Source: Clostridia bacterium
GTDB lineage: Bacteria; Bacillota; Clostridia; Oscillospirales; Acutalibacteraceae
Assembly (NCBI GenBank): GCA_017449935.1
Contig: JAFSYP010000124.1
Coordinates: 1-64,000, forward strand
DNA length: 64,000 nucleotides
Reading direction: 5' to 3'
Part shown: one piece after another, positions 7,125-62,270 of the stretch
How the letters are laid out: every line of letters starts with the position of its first letter
How positions within the stretch are numbered: the first letter of the stretch is position 1
Notes under the pieces: model-generated
What the model saw: only the letters and a program-made list of their open reading frames with translations
Databases searched by the model: none
What the model was told of the DNA's origin: nothing
Position numbers and translations under genes: made by a program

Positions 7125-8864
7125 TCATTCACCAAACAATGTCCTAATGCTTCCGGCGATCTGCGCTTCCAGTTCCTTCGCCTCATCATTCAGCGCTTCA
7201 AACTCTGCGTTCAGCCCAAGCATCGTCTCCCGGAATTCCGCTTCGGTTATGCCGTCGTCCTCGATCACCACGCCCACATACCGTCCGGCATTGAGGGAAT
7301 AGTCCTGGTCGATGATGCCGTCTTCGCCGTCCAGCTTTGCCGCTTTGCAAAGGCCGATCACGTCCCGATATGTACCGTCCGGGAACCGCTCGGTCAGCCA
7401 GTCGATCTGTGCCTGCCAATAGGATTTTGTCGGGATCTCTTTGTCGTCGCTCACGTCGGGCGCGCTCGCCATCGCCGTTTCATATTCCGCGATCAGCGCA
7501 GTCAATGCGTCCGTGTCGCCGTTATACAGTCGCGTGATGACGCCGAGGTTTTTGATCTGCTCGTCGCTGAATTTGCGGTGCGCACGATCCACCTGCGTGA
7601 ACACGTTTCGCGCGTCGATGAACAGTATTTCGTCTTTTTTGTCCGTCTGCGGCTTGTGCTTGTCAAAGAACCACAGCGTCGCAGGCAGCGTGACGGAAGA
7701 AAACATATTGGACGGCAGCGTCACCATCTGGCTGATGACGCCCTCTTCAATCATCTTTTTGCGGATCGCATATTCGCTCTTTCCGGCGTCCGACGCCGAG
7801 TTCGCCATGACCAGCGCCGCTTTGCCGTGCTCGTTCAGCGCCGTGGCAAAATAGCCGATCCACAGATAGTTGGCGTTGGGAACCGTTTCTTTCTTGTCCG
7901 ATTTCTTCTTGGCGGACTTCGTCGCGTTTCGCGGCACGCCGTAGGTGTTGAAACGCGGATCGGCGCTGACGCGGTCGAACGTGACCTCGTCCACGTTGAA
8001 CGGCGGATTTGCCATCACATAGTCGAATGCGCCGAACGCGTTGTACGGATCGGAATAGAAAGAATTCGCCTCCGTGACGTCGCCGCGGACGTTGTTGAGC
8101 ATCAGATTCATTTTGGCCAGTTTCACCGTGTCCGGTTCCTTTTCCACGCCGTAGCAGCGGAATTTCATCTGCTCCGCTTTACCGGCATTGTGCCTGTGCA
8201 TATACCGCGCCGCCTGTACGAACATCCCGCCGGAACCGCACGCCGGATCGAGGATCTTTTTGTCGCCGGGCTGGGGATCGAGCACCTCGACCATATAGCG
8301 CACGACTGTCGCGGGCGTGTAGAATGTGCCGCCGTCCTTGCCCTCCGCCAGCGCGAAGTTGCCGAGAAAGTATTCGTAGATTTCGCCGAAGATATCCACG
8401 GTGCAGTTTTCCGGAATGTCCTTGAAAATGCGCACGATGTTCGACAGCAGCTCCGGCTCCTCCTCCGGCACGAGCTGGGCGTAGACTTCCTTCGGCAGCA
8501 CGCCGTCCATTTTCGGGTTTTCCCGCTCAATCGCTTCCATTGCTTCTTTGACAAGCGTCGCTTTCTCCGCCGTGTCGGGGGATTCGTTGATGAAATCGTA
8601 GTAGGCGCACTCCGGCAGATAGAAGCCGCACCGCTCGATCGCAATCTCTTTCTTTGTCTTTTCCATGCGGGTGCCGGACAAGCGGGCATATTCCGCGTCG
8701 ATCTCCGCCATGTGCTGCTTGAACAGAATGTCGGCATAGCGCAGGAAGATCAGCCCCAGGATTGGCTGACCGTATTTGTTCGCCGCAAGATGCGCGCCGG
8801 AACGCAGCACGTCCGCCGCGTGCCAGAGATTGTCCTTTAAGGTTTTCAGCTCTTTATCCGTCAT
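7125..8864 (-). CDS. hsdM: type I restriction-modification DNA methyltransferase (HsdM)
   Basis: N6-adenine methyltransferase subunit; with HsdS it forms the modification enzyme and the core of the restriction complex. Motif I is DPACGSGG at residues 206-213 (SAM binding) and motif IV is NPPF at 286-289 (catalysis). The N-terminal HsdM helical domain starts with DNLWHAADVLR, and the protein has the usual 579-aa length. ATG 8864 is chosen because GGAGG sits seven bases upstream; an in-frame ATG nine codons earlier has no such site. It is the first gene of the hsd operon, driven by the promoter at 8948-8976. Confidence 0.96.
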   Translation of the reverse strand: MTDKELKTLKDNLWHAADVLRSGAHLAANKYGQPILGLIFLRYADILFKQHMAEIDAEYARLSGTRMEKTKKEIAIERCGFYLPECAYYDFINESPDTAEKATLVKEAMEAIERENPKMDGVLPKEVYAQLVPEEEPELLSNIVRIFKDIPENCTVDIFGEIYEYFLGNFALAEGKDGGTFYTPATVVRYMVEVLDPQPGDKKILDPACGSGGMFVQAARYMHRHNAGKAEQMKFRCYGVEKEPDTVKLAKMNLMLNNVRGDVTEANSFYSDPYNAFGAFDYVMANPPFNVDEVTFDRVSADPRFNTYGVPRNATKSAKKKSDKKETVPNANYLWIGYFATALNEHGKAALVMANSASDAGKSEYAIRKKMIEEGVISQMVTLPSNMFSSVTLPATLWFFDKHKPQTDKKDEILFIDARNVFTQVDRAHRKFSDEQIKNLGVITRLYNGDTDALTALIAEYETAMASAPDVSDDKEIPTKSYWQAQIDWLTERFPDGTYRDVIGLCKAAKLDGEDGIIDQDYSLNAGRYVGVVIEDDGITEAEFRETMLGLNAEFEALNDEAKELEAQIAGSIRTLFGE

Positions 8865-56510: not shown

Positions 56511-56541
56511 AAAGGGGCTGCCTTAGCGTGACAGCCCCTTT
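56511..56541. terminator. terminator of the S-box gene (bidirectional)
   Basis: Perfect 10-bp stem AAAGGGGCTG/CAGCCCCTTT around 11 bases, 35 bases after the stop of the minus-strand 100-aa gene. Confidence 0.8.
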
Positions 56542-56575: not shown

Positions 56576-56878
56576 TCACGGTTTGTCGGGCCGGAAGTGC
56601 TTCGCGCCGCGGACGAACTTTTCGTAATCCACGCGGTGGAAGCCGTGCGCGTCGCCGCATTGGAACCGGATATTCCCGTTGGCGCCGACATAGCGGATCG
56701 TGCCGTCGTGCAGCGCCATGACCGTCGCGTACGGATGGGCAGTCGGTCTGTCCCGGCCGATCGTGAAGCCTTCGGCTTCGGCGTCCCGCAGGAACCGGTT
56801 GCCGATCCGCGCATGCCGCAGCAGGATGTAAACGTCGCCTTTCAGTGTCTTGCGCAGGTTGGTGAGTGTTCTTTCCAT
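56576..56878 (-). CDS. 100-aa uncharacterised protein under a SAM riboswitch
   Basis: Not recognised. A small basic soluble protein: a helical start (RTLTNLRKTLKGDVYILLRH), a middle segment RNRFLRDAEAEG-like, then a beta pair YATVMALHDGTIRYVGANGN and a His/Cys-containing end (FQCGDAHGFHRVDYEKF). No transmembrane segment and no methyltransferase motif. GGAGG is eight bases before the ATG, buried in a hairpin. It is the only gene on the transcript started by the promoter at 57064-57092 and passes through an S-box leader, so its expression should rise when S-adenosylmethionine is scarce. A role in methionine or SAM metabolism is inferred from this control only. Confidence 0.75.
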   Translation of the reverse strand: MERTLTNLRKTLKGDVYILLRHARIGNRFLRDAEAEGFTIGRDRPTAHPYATVMALHDGTIRYVGANGNIRFQCGDAHGFHRVDYEKFVRGAKHFRPDKP

Positions 56879-56886
56879 TTGTTTTT

Positions 56887-56920
56887 CCTCCGTGTTTTTT
56901 ATTTCAAGAGTACACGGAGG
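56887..56920 (-). promoter_or_regulatory. hairpin sequestering the ribosome binding site
   Basis: Perfect 9-bp inverted repeat: on the minus strand CCTCCGTGT (56920-56912) pairs with ACACGGAGG (56895-56887) over a 16-base loop. The 3' arm contains the GGAGG used by the 100-aa gene. It lies between the riboswitch terminator and the start codon, so transcripts that escape termination would still be blocked unless the hairpin is opened. Confidence 0.7.
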
Positions 56921-56923
56921 GCA

Positions 56924-57058
56924 CAAAAAACGCGCCCATCGTCCGACAGGCGCGTCACCGGGATCTATGCCGCCTATCGTTCAGCCGTTAGCACCTTACC
57001 TTCCGGCAGGTTGCTGTGCAGTCGTCGGGGCTGTCCCTCGTGCACTCTTGATAGAACG
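56924..57058 (-). ncRNA. SAM-I riboswitch (S-box)
   Basis: The minus strand shows the S-box consensus in order: CTATCAAGAG, then GAGGGACAGCCCCGACGA, CAGCAACC, AAGGTGCTAA, and CGATAG closing P1 (aptamer 57054-56974). The expression platform is a terminator, stem ACGCGCC/GGCGCGT (56955-56930) followed by six U. SAM binding should favour termination. Confidence 0.95.
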
Positions 57059-57063
57059 GTTTA

Positions 57064-57092
57064 ACCTTAACACAAAACCCGATATGTGTCAA
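57064..57092 (-). promoter_or_regulatory. promoter of the S-box transcript
   Basis: Minus strand TTGACA (57092-57087), 17 bases, TAAGGT (57069-57064), directly upstream of the aptamer. Confidence 0.75.
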
Positions 57093-57302: not shown

Positions 57303-60300
57303 TTACGGCTGCACGACGTTCGCGCGGAGCATACCGCACGCGCGCAGCAGATCGCCGTCCGTCGCGTCGATCGTACCGTTGTTGTCCGCGTCGGCAGCGC
57401 GGTACGCCGCTGCGCCGCCGCTGCTCTGCTTGGTCAGCCTGCCCGCAACGTACGCATAGACCAGCGCGGCGTCGACGCCGTTGCACTGGCCGTCGCCGTC
57501 CACGTCGCCCACCAGCACGAACGTCTTGCTGTCGAGCGTATGGCTGCTGCTGTCGAGCAGTCGGATCGTGCAGCGGGTATGCACCGCCTCGTCGCTGCCC
57601 ATCGTTCTGCCCGTCTCGTCGTGGATCACCAGCGAGGAGGCGGCGTTGTCGAACTGGGCGATGATCTGCGCGACCGTATTATGCGTCACGTCGATGCCCG
57701 TGACGATGCCGTCTGTGTAGTCGATCGTCATATGCGACGTGCTCTTGAGCGAGAGCGTGGTCGTGTCGAGCAAGCCGGACGTATTGATAAAGAAGCGGTC
57801 GTTGCTCACGGTGAAGCCGCTGCACAGCGACGCGATATTGCTGCCGGAGAGCATCGGCGTGCCGATGGTATAAACGGACGGCGTGAGCACCGCCGTCGGA
57901 TGCGTGCCGGCGACTGTGACTGTTTTGCCGCTCGAAAGGTAGACGTCATTGTTCGCGTCGATCTGTACGGAATCGAGCGTCAGCGTGCCCGCGTTATACG
58001 CTGCGGCGCCGTTTGCGGTCGCCGTATTGGACGCGACGCTGCCGCCGCTGACGGTGAAGCTGCCGTTCTGGATATACAGACCGCCGCCGTTGCGCGCGCT
58101 GTTTGCGCTGATCGCGCCCTGCGAAAGCGAGCCGGTCCCGCTCTGGACGAACATGCCGCCGCCGAGCCTGGCGCTGTTGCCGCTGAGCTCGCCGCTGATG
58201 CTGACTTCGCTCGTCGTGGATTCGCCCTCGTCGTCGATCGTGATGACCGTGATCGTGCCGCCGGGCATGGTCACGGAGCCGGTCGCGGTGTAAATACCGC
58301 CGCCGTTCTGCGACGCGGTGTTCGAGGCGATCGTGCCGCCTTCAAACGCGACCGTGCCGGTATTGTACAGCGCGCCGCCGTTCGTCGCGCTGCACGCGGT
58401 GATCGAGCCGCCCTGCATGGAGACGGAGCCGGTATTGTACAGCGCGCCGCCGCTCGTTGCGGTCGATCCGGTGATCGTGCCGCCCGTGATCTCCGTCGTA
58501 CCGGTACTGTGGATCGCGCCGCCGCTCACACCGGAGCAGTTGCGGATCGCGCCGCCGGAGATCTCCAGCGTGCCAAGATTGCGGATCGCCGCGCCGTTTC
58601 CGGACGACGACGCGTTTTGCAGCGTCGCGCCGTCCTTGATCCGGACGGTGCCGTTATTTTCCACGATGCACGTGCCGTACGTGCCGTACAGCGCGCTGCC
58701 GCCGTCCACGACGAGCGCGTTGTCATTCGTTGTGCCGTTCGCGCCGAATTCGAGCGTGGCGTCTGAGGCGACAGTGAACATCGCGCCCGTGCAGGTCTGA
58801 TACCGTGTGATCGTGCGCGTGCCGGTGTTTTCACCGACGATGGTGACCGTTACGTTTCCTCTGACCTCAATGGTCTCCTCGACGCTGTCGTCCGCGATCA
58901 TGGTGATCAGACCGGTCTCGGTGCCGATGGCGTCCACCGCCTCCTTGAGCGAGGTATAGTACACGTCGTACGAGCCGAACACGCTGACCTTCGCCACATT
59001 ATGGATCTCCTTGGCGATCAGCTTGCCGGAGGAATTGATATGCAGTTCCGTCGTCGCGCCCGAAGGCACGTTCAGGAGGTATTTTGCGTAGTTCGCGGCG
59101 CAGAAGTCGCCCGTCAGCACCTGCGTGCCGGCCGTGTAATTGGCGGCTGTCAGCGAAGCGATCAGGCCGTCGGCCGTCAGACGGCCGGTATTTTTCACGG
59201 TGCGGCCGCTCGGCAGATAGACGTCGTCCGTGCTGTCAAGGTACACGCCCTCGGAGAATTCCAGCACGTTGCCCTGATAGACGCCGACCGCGGAAGGCGC
59301 CGTGTTGCCGGACACCGTGCCGCCGCTCATCTGCAGCTTGCCCGTGTTGTAGAATGCGCCGCCGCGCACGGTCGCCGTGTTGCCGGACGCCGTGCCGCCG
59401 CTCCAGAGTACGGTGCTGTTCTGGTTGTAAACGCCGCCGCCGTTCTGCGCCGTGTTGCCGGAAACGGTCAGGCCGCGCAGCTCCACCTCCGCGCCGGTAC
59501 CCAGAAGATAAACGCCGCCGCCGTTTTGCGCCGTGTTGCCGGACACCGTGCCGCCGTCGGCGTACAGCACGCCGCCGTTCATGTAGATGCCGCCGCCGTT
59601 CTGCGCCGTGTTGCCGCTGATTTTGCCGCCCTGCATGAGCAGCGTGCCGCCGTCCGACAGGACGCCGCCGCCGTTTCCGGACGACGTGTTCGCCGTGATG
59701 AGGACGCCGTCCTGCATCGTGACGGTGCCGGTGGAACTGATCGAGATCGGCGCGCTGCCGCTCGCGGAAGAACCGCCGCCGTTCAGACACAGCTTATCCG
59801 TCCCCGTACCGACGAGCGTCAGGCTGCCGGAGACCGTGAAGAAGCTGCCGGTATAGCTCGCGCCGCGCGTGAGCGTGCGCGTCTGCGCGTTGTCCGTGAC
59901 CGTCACGCTGCCCGTGATCGTCGCCGTGTCGGTAATCGTCGAGTCGCGCAGAACGACCAGCGTCCCATCGCCCGTGCCGATGTGCGACGCGCCGAGCTTG
60001 ACGGACGCGTAGTATGTATTCATTTCGCCGTCCACTTCCGCCATGACGGTATAGACGCCCTTGAGCACGGCCGCGCTTTCCTTGGACGTGTTCTTGAGCA
60101 GCGAATTCGTGGAGTTATAGAAGACCTTCAGCTCCGGGCAGTAGTCGAAATACTGATCCATGCCGCGGTCCACCCAGTAGGTGGAGCTGAAGCCGGTGAA
60201 CGCGGAGATGCTCGTCGGCTCGGCCATCTGCGCGGTCGTCTTGGGCGTGGCGTTCGTGTCGGAAACGCCGCTGCGCTCGGAGTCGTAATAGCAGTACCGC

Positions 60301-62270
60301 ACCGTGCCGTTCTGGAAATAGCCCATCACGGCGCCGACCTGCTGGGCGCCCTTGACGTAACCGATGTTGTAGCAGTTGGTGAAGCCGTTGGCGTCGGCGC
60401 TGTTCTGATAGCCGACCAGACCGCCGACCGAAACGCCGCCGTCCACAAGCCCGTTGTTGTAGCAGTACTGGATCGCGCCGTAGTTGGTTCCGATGACGCC
60501 GCCCGTACGCTGCATACCGGTGACCTTGCCCTTATTGAAGCAGCTGATGACGCTGCCGCCGTTGTTTGCGCCGGTGACGCCGCCCGACCAGTTGCCGCCG
60601 TCCACGTCGCCGACGTTGCCGCTGGTGCGGATTGTGCCGGTGTTGGAGCCGGCGATGCCGCCCGTGTAATACATCGACTGCACGGAGGAATAATTGAAGC
60701 AGTTCTCGATCGTGCCCTCATTGGACGCCGCGATCGCGCCGGAATAATTGTAGCCGACGATCTTTGACCTGTCGAGGAAAATATTCTTGACCGTGCCGCC
60801 GGTCCCGATGCAGCCGAACAGGCCGGTATAGTTCACGGTGTTGTCGGGCAGATAAATGCCGCTGATGCGGTATTCGCCGCCGTCAAACGTACCGATAAAG
60901 GGCGAAGACTCCGTGCCGATCGGCGTCCATACGTTGGACGTTTCGTCAAAGATGCCGGGGTTGAGCAGGATGTCGCGCATGACCTTGCCCTTGGCGGACC
61001 TGTTCTGCGCCACGCCGGAGAGCGTGCCGTTGACCAGACGCGCGAACCATGCCAGCTCGCTGCCGCTGGTGATCAGGTACGTCCCGGAGCTGTCCGTTTC
61101 CGGCTCGCCGATCGAGCCGTCCCAGCCGATGAGCTGCCAGCGCAGGATGGGATAGCCGTTGTTGGTATTGAAGTAGTCGCCGACGTAGATCTCGAACGCG
61201 AAATTCAGCGTTGTCAGAAAGCTGTCGTCCATCATCAGCTCATGCTCGGCGGCCGTGGCGTAGCTGTCGCTGCCGGTCGTCAGATCGCGGTCGTAGTAGC
61301 ACTTGGCGTACCGCGTGCCGTACGTCACGTTGCCGAAGCACAGGCCGGTGAACTCGCCCGAGCAGCTGACCGTGCCGATGTTGTACATGCACAGCAGCAT
61401 ACCGTACAGCGTATAGCCGACCAGACCGCCGCAGGAATTGTTCGATGCGGTGATCGCGCCCTTGTTGTAGCTGTGGGTGACCTCGCTGCCGGAGGCCGTG
61501 CCGATGATGCCGCCGACGTAGGAAGCGCCGCTGATCGCGCCCGTGTTGCAGCAGCCGTTGACGGACGTGTTGCTGAAGCAGTAGCCGGCGATGCCGCCGA
61601 TACGCAGCGTGCCGCTGACCGCGGCGTTGTTTTCGCAGTTGAGCACCGTACCCTCGAGCGTGTTGTTTCCGACGATGCCGCCCGCGTTCGGGCCGGTGCA
61701 GGTGACCGTACCGGAGACGCGGCAGCCGGAGATCGCGCCGCCCTCCGACACGCCGGCGATGCCGCCGATGTTCTTGCTGCCCTCGATCACGGCGCCGGTC
61801 AGCACCACGTCGTTGATCTCGGCAGGCGTGTAGACCGTTTCGGTGACGGGATCGCCGTTCGTATCATAGGTCGTTTGCGTCGTCGCCGTCGCGGCGATAT
61901 AACCGAACAGACCGCGGCCTTCCTCGCTGCCCGTCACCTTCAGGTTCGAGATCGTGTAGCCGCCGCCGTTGTAGACGCCCTTGAACTTCTGCGTCGAGGT
62001 GCCGATCGGCGTGAAGGGACGGCTGCCCATGTCGAGGTTAGTCGTCTGCTTCGCCTTGATGCTCGGATAGCCGGAGTTGACGCGGTTGGAGAACCACGCC
62101 AGCTTTTCTCCGGAGTCGATCAGATAATAGCCCTCGGCGTTCATCGACGGCGTCGCCGTCCCGCCGCCCCAGGGGGAGGCCAGCGCGGACAGGCACGCAA
62201 AGGGGATCAGGGCCGCCGTCACCGCAAACGTCAGCAGCCACGCCAGGACGGATTTTGTATATCGTTTCAT
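57303..62270 (-). CDS. giant secreted beta-helix protein with GLUG and PMP-like repeats and C-terminal dockerin
   Basis: A 1,655-aa exported protein. Signal peptide residues 1-31. Residues about 40-720 carry GLUG-type repeats (GRGLFGYI, NIGGIAGVSEGGAISG, VGGLVGYQNS), a beta-helix module of surface adhesins. Residues about 750-1,560 carry polymorphic-outer-membrane-protein-like repeats (SGNTAQNGGGVY, SSGNGAAIRN). Residues 1,587-1,655 are a type I dockerin with two calcium loops: DVDGDGQCNGVDAALVYAYV and DADNNGTIDATDGDLLRACG. It should be displayed through a cohesin partner, on a cellulosome-like or other surface complex; no cohesin is in the window. AAAAAGGAGC upstream of the ATG. No catalytic domain is seen; adhesion or polysaccharide binding is inferred. 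Confidence 0.9.
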   Translation of the reverse strand: MKRYTKSVLAWLLTFAVTAALIPFACLSALASPWGGGTATPSMNAEGYYLIDSGEKLAWFSNRVNSGYPSIKAKQTTNLDMGSRPFTPIGTSTQKFKGVYNGGGYTISNLKVTGSEEGRGLFGYIAATATTQTTYDTNGDPVTETVYTPAEINDVVLTGAVIEGSKNIGGIAGVSEGGAISGCRVSGTVTCTGPNAGGIVGNNTLEGTVLNCENNAAVSGTLRIGGIAGYCFSNTSVNGCCNTGAISGASYVGGIIGTASGSEVTHSYNKGAITASNNSCGGLVGYTLYGMLLCMYNIGTVSCSGEFTGLCFGNVTYGTRYAKCYYDRDLTTGSDSYATAAEHELMMDDSFLTTLNFAFEIYVGDYFNTNNGYPILRWQLIGWDGSIGEPETDSSGTYLITSGSELAWFARLVNGTLSGVAQNRSAKGKVMRDILLNPGIFDETSNVWTPIGTESSPFIGTFDGGEYRISGIYLPDNTVNYTGLFGCIGTGGTVKNIFLDRSKIVGYNYSGAIAASNEGTIENCFNYSSVQSMYYTGGIAGSNTGTIRTSGNVGDVDGGNWSGGVTGANNGGSVISCFNKGKVTGMQRTGGVIGTNYGAIQYCYNNGLVDGGVSVGGLVGYQNSADANGFTNCYNIGYVKGAQQVGAVMGYFQNGTVRYCYYDSERSGVSDTNATPKTTAQMAEPTSISAFTGFSSTYWVDRGMDQYFDYCPELKVFYNSTNSLLKNTSKESAAVLKGVYTVMAEVDGEMNTYYASVKLGASHIGTGDGTLVVLRDSTITDTATITGSVTVTDNAQTRTLTRGASYTGSFFTVSGSLTLVGTGTDKLCLNGGGSSASGSAPISISSTGTVTMQDGVLITANTSSGNGGGVLSDGGTLLMQGGKISGNTAQNGGGIYMNGGVLYADGGTVSGNTAQNGGGVYLLGTGAEVELRGLTVSGNTAQNGGGVYNQNSTVLWSGGTASGNTATVRGGAFYNTGKLQMSGGTVSGNTAPSAVGVYQGNVLEFSEGVYLDSTDDVYLPSGRTVKNTGRLTADGLIASLTAANYTAGTQVLTGDFCAANYAKYLLNVPSGATTELHINSSGKLIAKEIHNVAKVSVFGSYDVYYTSLKEAVDAIGTETGLITMIADDSVEETIEVRGNVTVTIVGENTGTRTITRYQTCTGAMFTVASDATLEFGANGTTNDNALVVDGGSALYGTYGTCIVENNGTVRIKDGATLQNASSSGNGAAIRNLGTLEISGGAIRNCSGVSGGAIHSTGTTEITGGTITGSTATSGGALYNTGSVSMQGGSITACSATNGGALYNTGTVAFEGGTIASNTASQNGGGIYTATGSVTMPGGTITVITIDDEGESTTSEVSISGELSGNSARLGGGMFVQSGTGSLSQGAISANSARNGGGLYIQNGSFTVSGGSVASNTATANGAAAYNAGTLTLDSVQIDANNDVYLSSGKTVTVAGTHPTAVLTPSVYTIGTPMLSGSNIASLCSGFTVSNDRFFINTSGLLDTTTLSLKSTSHMTIDYTDGIVTGIDVTHNTVAQIIAQFDNAASSLVIHDETGRTMGSDEAVHTRCTIRLLDSSSHTLDSKTFVLVGDVDGDGQCNGVDAALVYAYVAGRLTKQSSGGAAAYRAADADNNGTIDATDGDLLRACGMLRANVVQP
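59290..59660 (-). repeat. internal coding repeats of the dockerin protein
   Basis: About five imperfect repeats of roughly 70-75 bases encode GNTAQNGGG-type beta-helix turns (residues about 870-995). The DNA GCCGCCGTTCTGCGCCGTGT recurs almost exactly near 59446, 59518 and 59592, so copy-number change by slippage or recombination is possible. Confidence 0.7.

What the first reader, a model, noticed from the sequence alone, without database searches (positions are those of the whole stretch)
56576..57092. SAM riboswitch devoted to one uncharacterised 100-aa gene
A complete S-box with promoter and terminator controls a single small gene that is not a known methionine, cysteine or transport gene. 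Riboswitch-controlled unknowns are strong leads to new pathway members.
Basis: partly seen in the sequence, partly recalled or inferred. Interest (0 to 1): 0.82.

Follow-up and report, generated by a model that had tools for sequence, protein, structure and literature searches.

The report
SAM-sensing switch on phage-borne gene
An RNA leader that matches known sensors of the cell's methyl donor SAM sits in front of one small unnamed gene, the same leader-gene pair recurs in gut bacteria and in their phages, and it is predicted to turn the gene on only when SAM runs low, likely to protect DNA when methylation fails.

Summary
A promoter-like sequence, a SAM-I aptamer (Rfam RF00162, 56 bits, cut-off 44.4), a terminator and a 100-aa ORF without a known domain lie in order on the minus strand, as a single-gene unit.

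The linkage is no accident. In 35 genomes, 36 of 42 places encoding a relative have the aptamer just upstream. So do 20 of 20 IMG/VR loci and the one annotated phage record found. Of the 70 SAM-I matches in those genomes, 38 precede this gene, 27 metK and 5 something else. Relatives are under purifying selection.

First, the leader carries an extra layer. The aptamer's own 5' strand is complementary to a segment after the terminator, which also pairs with the ribosome-binding site. This suggests double control, at termination and at translation. It is common in this family and rare in metK leaders.

Second, the gene is patchy (25 of 300 family genomes sampled) and mobile. In one phage lineage it lies tail-to-tail with DNA methyltransferase genes. 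That argues against a core methionine-pathway member.

The protein's action is unproven. I favour a back-up that protects DNA when methylation fails; a SAM-supply role or an infection-triggered defence role is not excluded.

The parts
57064..57092 (-). sigma-70-like promoter TTGACA-N17-TAAGGT (weak -10)
   Evidence: sequence; by a strict rule 37 of 51 family leaders have a promoter-like site before the aptamer (shuffled mean 3.7, maximum 10), the window's own not among the 37 because of its -10
56971..57057 (-). SAM-I (S-box) riboswitch aptamer
   Evidence: RF00162, 56.0 bits, E 3e-10, model 1-108
57035..57051 (-). aptamer 5' strand (P1/P2) complementary to the anti-aptamer downstream
   Evidence: 17 base pairs, duplex -27.1 kcal/mol; leader-wide tests
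56971..56979 (-). 3' strand of P1, able to form a 9-bp antiterminator with 56952-56944
   Evidence: complementarity CGAUAGGCG/CGCCUGUCG
56924..56956 (-). intrinsic terminator (hairpin plus U run)
   Evidence: sequence and fold
56904..56921 (-). anti-aptamer / anti-SD segment
   Evidence: pairs either with aptamer 57051-57035 or with the SD segment 56895-56887
56887..56895 (-). SD-bearing segment ACACGGAGG, 9 bp with 56920-56912
   Evidence: hairpin -15.0 kcal/mol
56576..56878 (-). 100-aa ORF of an unnamed protein family (pI 10.1, 11.5 kDa)
   Evidence: AlphaFold2 pLDDT 92.3, pTM 0.83
56511..56541 (.). inverted repeat between the convergent gene ends, probably a shared terminator
   Evidence: read by eye from the sequence

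Best explanation
The unit is a SAM-I riboswitch match with its own promoter-like sequence, terminator and single 100-codon gene, a pair that recurs in gut bacteria and phages; it is predicted to switch the gene on, through both termination and translation, only when SAM runs low, and the small protein likely protects the DNA that carries it when SAM-dependent methylation fails. Predicted steps: (1) With SAM bound, the P1 helix holds the aptamer together, the terminator forms, and in any read-through RNA the free anti-aptamer segment pairs with the SD, so little protein is made. (2) Without SAM, the 3' strand of P1 pairs with the terminator's 5' arm and lets the polymerase through. The aptamer's 5' strand then captures the anti-aptamer segment, which frees the SD. 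(3) The protein is made in SAM shortage. Inferred and least certain: it acts as a SAM-independent back-up for DNA protection, blunting restriction or adjusting methyltransferases. That would explain why a phage lineage keeps it tail-to-tail with its methyltransferase genes. Shown: the aptamer match, the gene, the linkage, the complementarities, the phage copies, the purifying selection in relatives. Not shown: SAM binding, switching, and any activity of the protein.
For: Aptamer. Linkage: 36 of 42 places in 35 genomes over the Rfam cut-off, 2 more below it (43.8 and 30.1 bits), 4 without; 20 of 20 IMG/VR loci, several near-copies; one annotated phage of 50,697 records, with an aptamer of 59.9 bits. 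Regulon: of 70 SAM-I matches in the 35 genomes, 38 precede the family gene; of the other 32, 27 lie before metK. Anti-aptamer: 51 leaders, mean -17.3 kcal/mol, 29 of 51 at p<=0.01 against dinucleotide shuffles; metK leaders mean -9.0, 1 of 26. Among 14 leaders under 80% alike, 0 of 10,000 permutations of partners reach the true mean. SD: mean chance of being unpaired 0.11 with a free anti-aptamer, 0.63 with it engaged, 0.30 shuffled, 37 leaders. Selection: dN/dS about 0.09-0.24 in six close pairs of relatives. Mobility: phage members in several places of the tree (8 label changes, at least 3 forced). DNA methylation: 10 of 10 phage records tested of one lineage have a C5 and an N6/N4 methyltransferase gene next to the gene; 4 of 42 genome places lie within 10 kb of a C5 methyltransferase, about 0.28 expected.
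Against: No SAM binding or expression data. No clear fold or domain match, so the protein's action is a guess from context. The methyltransferase link rests mainly on one phage lineage: 0 of 7 records of the other viral group lie within 10 kb of one. Only 3 non-prophage genome places do, one of them near a partial gene (G234). 0 lie near a type I N6 methyltransferase. The test was made after seeing the phages. The window protein is basic (pI 10.1), unlike acidic DNA-mimic antirestriction proteins (recalled). The SD-release model is weak in places: L030 and L041 do not fit, L070 and L009 barely; in the window's leader the SD is only 0.44 free with the anti-aptamer engaged; only 15 of 37 leaders pass p<=0.05 singly, and only 10 of 37 go from under 0.5 to over 0.8 free. 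16 of 51 leaders show no anti-aptamer at p<=0.05. The true partner is the best one in 7 of 14 thinned leaders.
Confidence: 0.5

Rival explanations
1. The protein raises or spares SAM itself: a partner or activator of MetK, a SAM-saving regulator, or an uptake aid. The S-box then simply makes it a second member of a metK regulon.
For: In the genomes that carry it, metK and this gene account for 65 of 70 SAM-I matches, and S-box genes with known roles serve methionine and SAM metabolism (recalled).
Against: Patchy presence: 25 of 300, 12 of 394 and 4 of 11 genomes. No shared neighbourhood with met genes seen. Phage carriage, and copies without an S-box in the window's own genome and in G087.
Confidence: 0.22
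2. A defence switch. Phages such as T3 destroy SAM on entry; the riboswitch would sense the fall and release a protein that stops the infection. Tight double shut-off would fit a harmful product.
For: Phage SAMases that deplete SAM are known (abstract beginnings of PMC8406200 and PMC7877911 in the listing). Gene present in phages, a prophage and variable regions. Double lock predicted.
Against: No PADLOC match of note. Copies sit inside phages themselves. No sign of toxicity was looked for or seen; conserved over distant hosts.
Confidence: 0.15
3. Single-layer control. The leader is an ordinary SAM-I terminator switch, and the anti-aptamer complementarity only keeps the read-through RNA from refolding, or is a by-product of U runs and of the likeness between the SD and the aptamer strand AAGAG.
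For: The U run makes part of the pairing. The SD resembles the aptamer strand. Shuffled segments also hide the SD to some degree (0.30 unpaired). metK of the window's own genome shows a shorter version.
Against: True partners beat swapped partners on average, and metK leaders of the same genomes mostly lack the pairing. In one close relative (L009) the U run is broken (TTTCTTT) while the anti-aptamer/SD hairpin is kept.
Confidence: 0.25
4. The unit is decaying or non-functional in the window's strain.
For: The -10 hexamer is weak, and there are no expression data.
Against: Intact aptamer, terminator, SD and ORF in the window; purifying selection in relatives.
Confidence: 0.03

Closest known systems
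SAM-I (S-box) riboswitch, Rfam RF00162
   Same: Aptamer scores 56 bits over the full model; P1 3' strand / terminator arrangement.
   Different: Target is an unnamed mobile gene; a third strand after the terminator competes for the aptamer's 5' strand and for the SD.
Translational SAM-I riboswitch of Xanthomonas (PMC7270179, passages read)
   Same: A SAM-I aptamer whose expression platform holds an anti-SD hairpin.
   Different: It controls the met operon mainly at translation, and its authors presume translation attenuation rather than an intrinsic terminator. Here terminator and SD hairpin are combined, and the anti-SD is complementary to the aptamer itself.
Dual-acting TPP riboswitches (PMC10907184, passage read)
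   Same: One aptamer informs both translation and termination.
   Different: There termination is Rho-dependent and indirect; here an intrinsic terminator precedes the SD hairpin.
Riboswitches in phages: glutamine riboswitch of phage Melnitz (PMC9004378, passages); SAM-IV in Mycolicibacterium prophages, n=16 (PMC8190616, passage)
   Same: Metabolite riboswitches carried by phages.
   Different: Different classes and hosts; no link to this protein family in the passages read.
metK leader of the same genome (L002)
   Same: SAM-I aptamer, terminator; a shorter anti-aptamer pairing (-15.2 kcal/mol).
   Different: Controls SAM synthetase; the other 25 metK leaders tested do not reach p<=0.01.

Membership tests
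SAM-I riboswitch (RF00162) | Sequence and structure match over the curated cut-off | tested here: met
   56.0 bits against 44.4, whole model
SAM-I riboswitch (RF00162) | Mutually exclusive antiterminator and terminator downstream | tested here: met
   9-bp CGAUAGGCG/CGCCUGUCG against the terminator hairpin; sequence only
SAM-I riboswitch (RF00162) | Binds SAM and lowers expression | not testable with these tools
   needs probing and reporters
Methionine/SAM pathway gene | Belongs to a known methionine, cysteine, SAM or transport family | tested here: not met
   no Pfam or NCBIfam match at E<=1 for the protein
Phage moron (accessory gene with its own promoter and terminator) | Own promoter and leader, strand opposite to its larger neighbours, inside a phage genome | tested here: met
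   PV036439.1 44219-44515: the annotated genes next to its right and most to its left run the other way; promoter-like sequence and aptamer upstream. For the phage copy only
Prophage gene (window copy) | Phage structural genes nearby | tested here: not met
   TerL_ATPase lies on other contigs of G000; the neighbour is aspS. One phage marker was tried
Known anti-phage defence protein | PADLOC model match | tested here: inconclusive
   only 2 stray weak hits among 28 members, none for the window protein
Antirestriction protein | Inhibits a restriction enzyme | not testable with these tools
   context only
Known protein fold | Clear match to a solved structure | tested here: inconclusive

The most novel reading that the evidence does not exclude
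Phages and mobile islands carry a SAM gauge. A three-strand SAM-I riboswitch, in which the ribosome-binding site mimics the aptamer's own strand and both compete for one anti-strand, releases a new small protein exactly when SAM is too scarce for methylation to mark DNA as self, and that protein then replaces methylation as the shield against restriction.
Probability: 0.25. Interest if true: 0.88.

Novelty: new variant of a known kind. Interest (0 to 1): 0.72.

Why it matters
It gives an unnamed protein family, spread over gut Clostridia and their phages, a firm regulatory handle: SAM. It suggests that phages read the host's methyl-donor level through a bacterial riboswitch, which links metabolism to DNA methylation and restriction. 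It also offers a testable three-strand expression platform that couples termination and translation. In ten searches of the held library (at most 20 papers listed in each) I saw no paper on this family or on a SAM-I riboswitch before a phage gene of this kind. Most subscription papers are not in that library.

Tried and rejected

Rows dropped before counts: from 59 leader records, 8 duplicates (L001, L003, L005, L006, L007, L054, L061, L062); L055-L057, L065, L066, L074 and L108 never entered the leader tests. One search used 37 of 51 leaders (pairing <= -14 and an SD found). One search used 40 leaders with an unambiguous aptamer end, thinned to 14. Searches used 17 of 21 viral records (L055, L057, L064, L066 left out). 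In some searches and 33 genomes were drawn from larger groups. The report was checked against the calls once; two searches were added then, raised the metK count from 26 of 27 to 27 of 32, and showed the window's -10 to be weak.

Full report
What is there. On the minus strand the window has, in order, a TTGACA-N17-TAAGGT promoter-like sequence (57092-57064; perfect -35, weak -10), a SAM-I aptamer (57057-56971; RF00162, 56.0 bits, cut-off 44.4, E 3e-10), a terminator (56956-56924), an SD (56891-56887) and a 100-aa ORF (56878-56576). The next gene, aspS, is convergent, so the transcription unit holds one gene. Pfam and NCBIfam give nothing at E<=1, PHROGs one hit at 0.42.

Is the gene real? One search lists 25 proteins, the window's own included; the other 24 are 60-73% identical to it. 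A profile finds 235; none of the 120 listed has a Pfam domain. Residues kept in at least 90% of 97 sequences include R3, E34, E36, G37, P45, G65, G68, R82 and D84. In six pairs of relatives at least 85% identical, dN is far below dS (for example 0.09 against 1.08 for L019/L035). AlphaFold2 gives confident models for the window protein (pLDDT 92.3, pTM 0.83) and for a 37%-identical relative (94.8, 0.85), both a small alpha/beta fold. Neither has a clear match among solved structures.

Is the link to the S-box real? Profile searches found 42 places in 35 genomes. In 36 of the 42, the window's own included, a SAM-I aptamer over the cut-off stands upstream on the same strand; two more have weaker ones (L022 43.8 bits, L045 30.1 bits). 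Four have none: L034 and L053 in genome G087, L036 in the window's genome, L024 on a short contig. A genome here has 0 to 4 such aptamers, so this cannot be chance. Of the 70 matches in the 35 genomes, 38 precede the family gene. The other 32 were all tested: 27 lie before metK, 5 do not. So the visible SAM-I regulon of these bacteria is mostly metK plus this gene.

Where is it found? It is accessory: 25 of 300 sampled genomes of the family, 12 of 394 of the order, 4 of 11 of the genus. I saw no conserved neighbours. Two profile scans of IMG/VR gave 20 loci, all 20 with the aptamer upstream, several of them near-copies; a third scan with the close relatives gave none. In the annotated phage collection one record of 50,697 has it: Ruminococcus phage NatCom_28274, with terminase, tape measure and primase genes. 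There the gene lies on the strand opposite to its larger neighbours, with its own promoter-like sequence and an aptamer of 59.9 bits. In the tree, phage and chromosomal members are mixed: 8 label changes, at least 3 forced by well-supported branches, though phage members cluster more than shuffled labels would. Genome G532 holds it 2.3 kb from a terminase gene, in a prophage. For the window's own copy no terminase gene lies on its contig.

An extra layer in the leader. In the window the aptamer's 5' strand (57051-57035) is complementary over 17 base pairs to 56921-56904, just after the terminator's U run (-27.1 kcal/mol). The same segment forms a 9-bp hairpin with the SD (56920-56912 with 56895-56887). 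This recurs. Over 51 leaders the pairing averages -17.3 kcal/mol, 29 of 51 at p<=0.01 and 35 at p<=0.05 against dinucleotide shuffles. In 26 metK leaders it averages -9.0, with 1 and 4 respectively. The one metK case is that of the window's genome. True partners pair better than swapped ones on average (0 of 5000 permutations). In 14 leaders under 80% alike the same holds (0 of 10,000), all 14 reach -14 kcal/mol, and the true partner is the best in 7. In the 37 leaders with strong pairing, the SD is predicted to be unpaired with chance 0.11 when the segment is free, 0.63 when it is engaged, and 0.30 when the segment is shuffled. L030 and L041 do not fit, L070 and L009 barely; 15 of 37 pass singly, and the window's own gives 0.00, 0.44 and 0.15. 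The SD segment in many leaders resembles the aptamer strand it competes with (such as AAGGAGUGCA for AAAGAGUGCG; read by eye). In L009, a same-genus relative, the U run is broken while the hairpin is kept.

How it would work. High SAM: aptamer and terminator form, and any read-through RNA has its SD hidden. Low SAM: the P1 3' strand (56979-56971) pairs with the terminator's 5' arm (56952-56944, 9 bp, -14.3 kcal/mol), RNA polymerase passes, and the aptamer's 5' strand takes the anti-SD away. All of this is inferred from sequence.

What the protein does. In one phage lineage all 10 records tested have a C5 and an N6/N4 DNA methyltransferase gene immediately beyond the gene's 3' end, convergent. 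In a second viral group, 0 of 7 have one within 10 kb. Of the 42 genome places, 4 lie within 10 kb of a C5 methyltransferase (G532 prophage, G121, G176, G234), with about 0.28 expected (after the fact); 0 lie near a type I N6 methyltransferase. Methyltransferases consume SAM, and restriction threatens DNA when methylation lags. I therefore favour a SAM-independent back-up for DNA protection, at low confidence. A SAM-supply role and an infection-sensing role (phages such as T3 destroy SAM: abstract beginnings of PMC8406200 and PMC7877911 in the listing) remain open.

Literature. Passages read: PMC9004378 calls riboswitches a rare feature in phages and describes a glutamine one; PMC8190616 counts SAM-IV (n=16) among prophage RNAs; PMC7270179 describes a translational SAM-I riboswitch with an anti-SD hairpin; PMC10907184 mentions dual TPP control. 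None describes this family in the passages read.

Noticed in passing
L107 4713-4799 (G014:C97, minus strand): A second SAM-I aptamer 0.5 kb upstream of the family gene's own aptamer, between lysS and a 71-aa ORF without an NCBIfam match that looks like a small membrane protein.
   Followed up: partly
L105 879-966 (G079:C261, plus strand): SAM-I aptamer followed by an unrelated 141-aa ORF without an NCBIfam match; the family gene is not there.
   Followed up: partly
L104 1027-1113 (G158:C49, plus strand): SAM-I aptamer followed by a convergent IS1182 transposase gene and no family gene: possibly an orphaned leader.
   Followed up: partly
L106 3411-3500 (G016:C27, minus strand): A second SAM-I aptamer near the family gene with no clear ORF after it, next to a recombinase-like gene (by eye).
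   Followed up: partly
L110 1496-1599 (G162:C114, plus strand): The strongest SAM-I aptamer of this genome is not before metK but before a 344-aa ORF with a weak likeness to N-formylglutamate deformylase (E 4e-9, under the cut-off).
   Followed up: partly
L002 (G000:C79, metK leader): The window genome's metK leader shows a shorter form of the anti-aptamer pairing (-15.2 kcal/mol, p 0.005), alone among 26 metK leaders at p<=0.01.
   Followed up: partly
L036 1480-2217, L111 (G000:C65): A second copy in the window's genome, without a SAM-I aptamer, lies near recombinase-like genes (by eye) and repeated WISVEDxLP-type proteins (likeness to a phage domain from memory, not confirmed by Pfam).
   Followed up: partly
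window 7545-8399 (-): A type I-like N6 DNA methyltransferase domain (PF02384, E 1e-72) 48 kb from the finding.
   Followed up: no
window 57303-62270 (-): A 1655-aa repeat-rich, probably secreted protein ending in a sequence that resembles a dockerin (by eye).
   Followed up: no
L114 555-636 (G277:C128, plus strand): ZMP/ZTP riboswitch divergent from an S-box-less family member.
   Followed up: no
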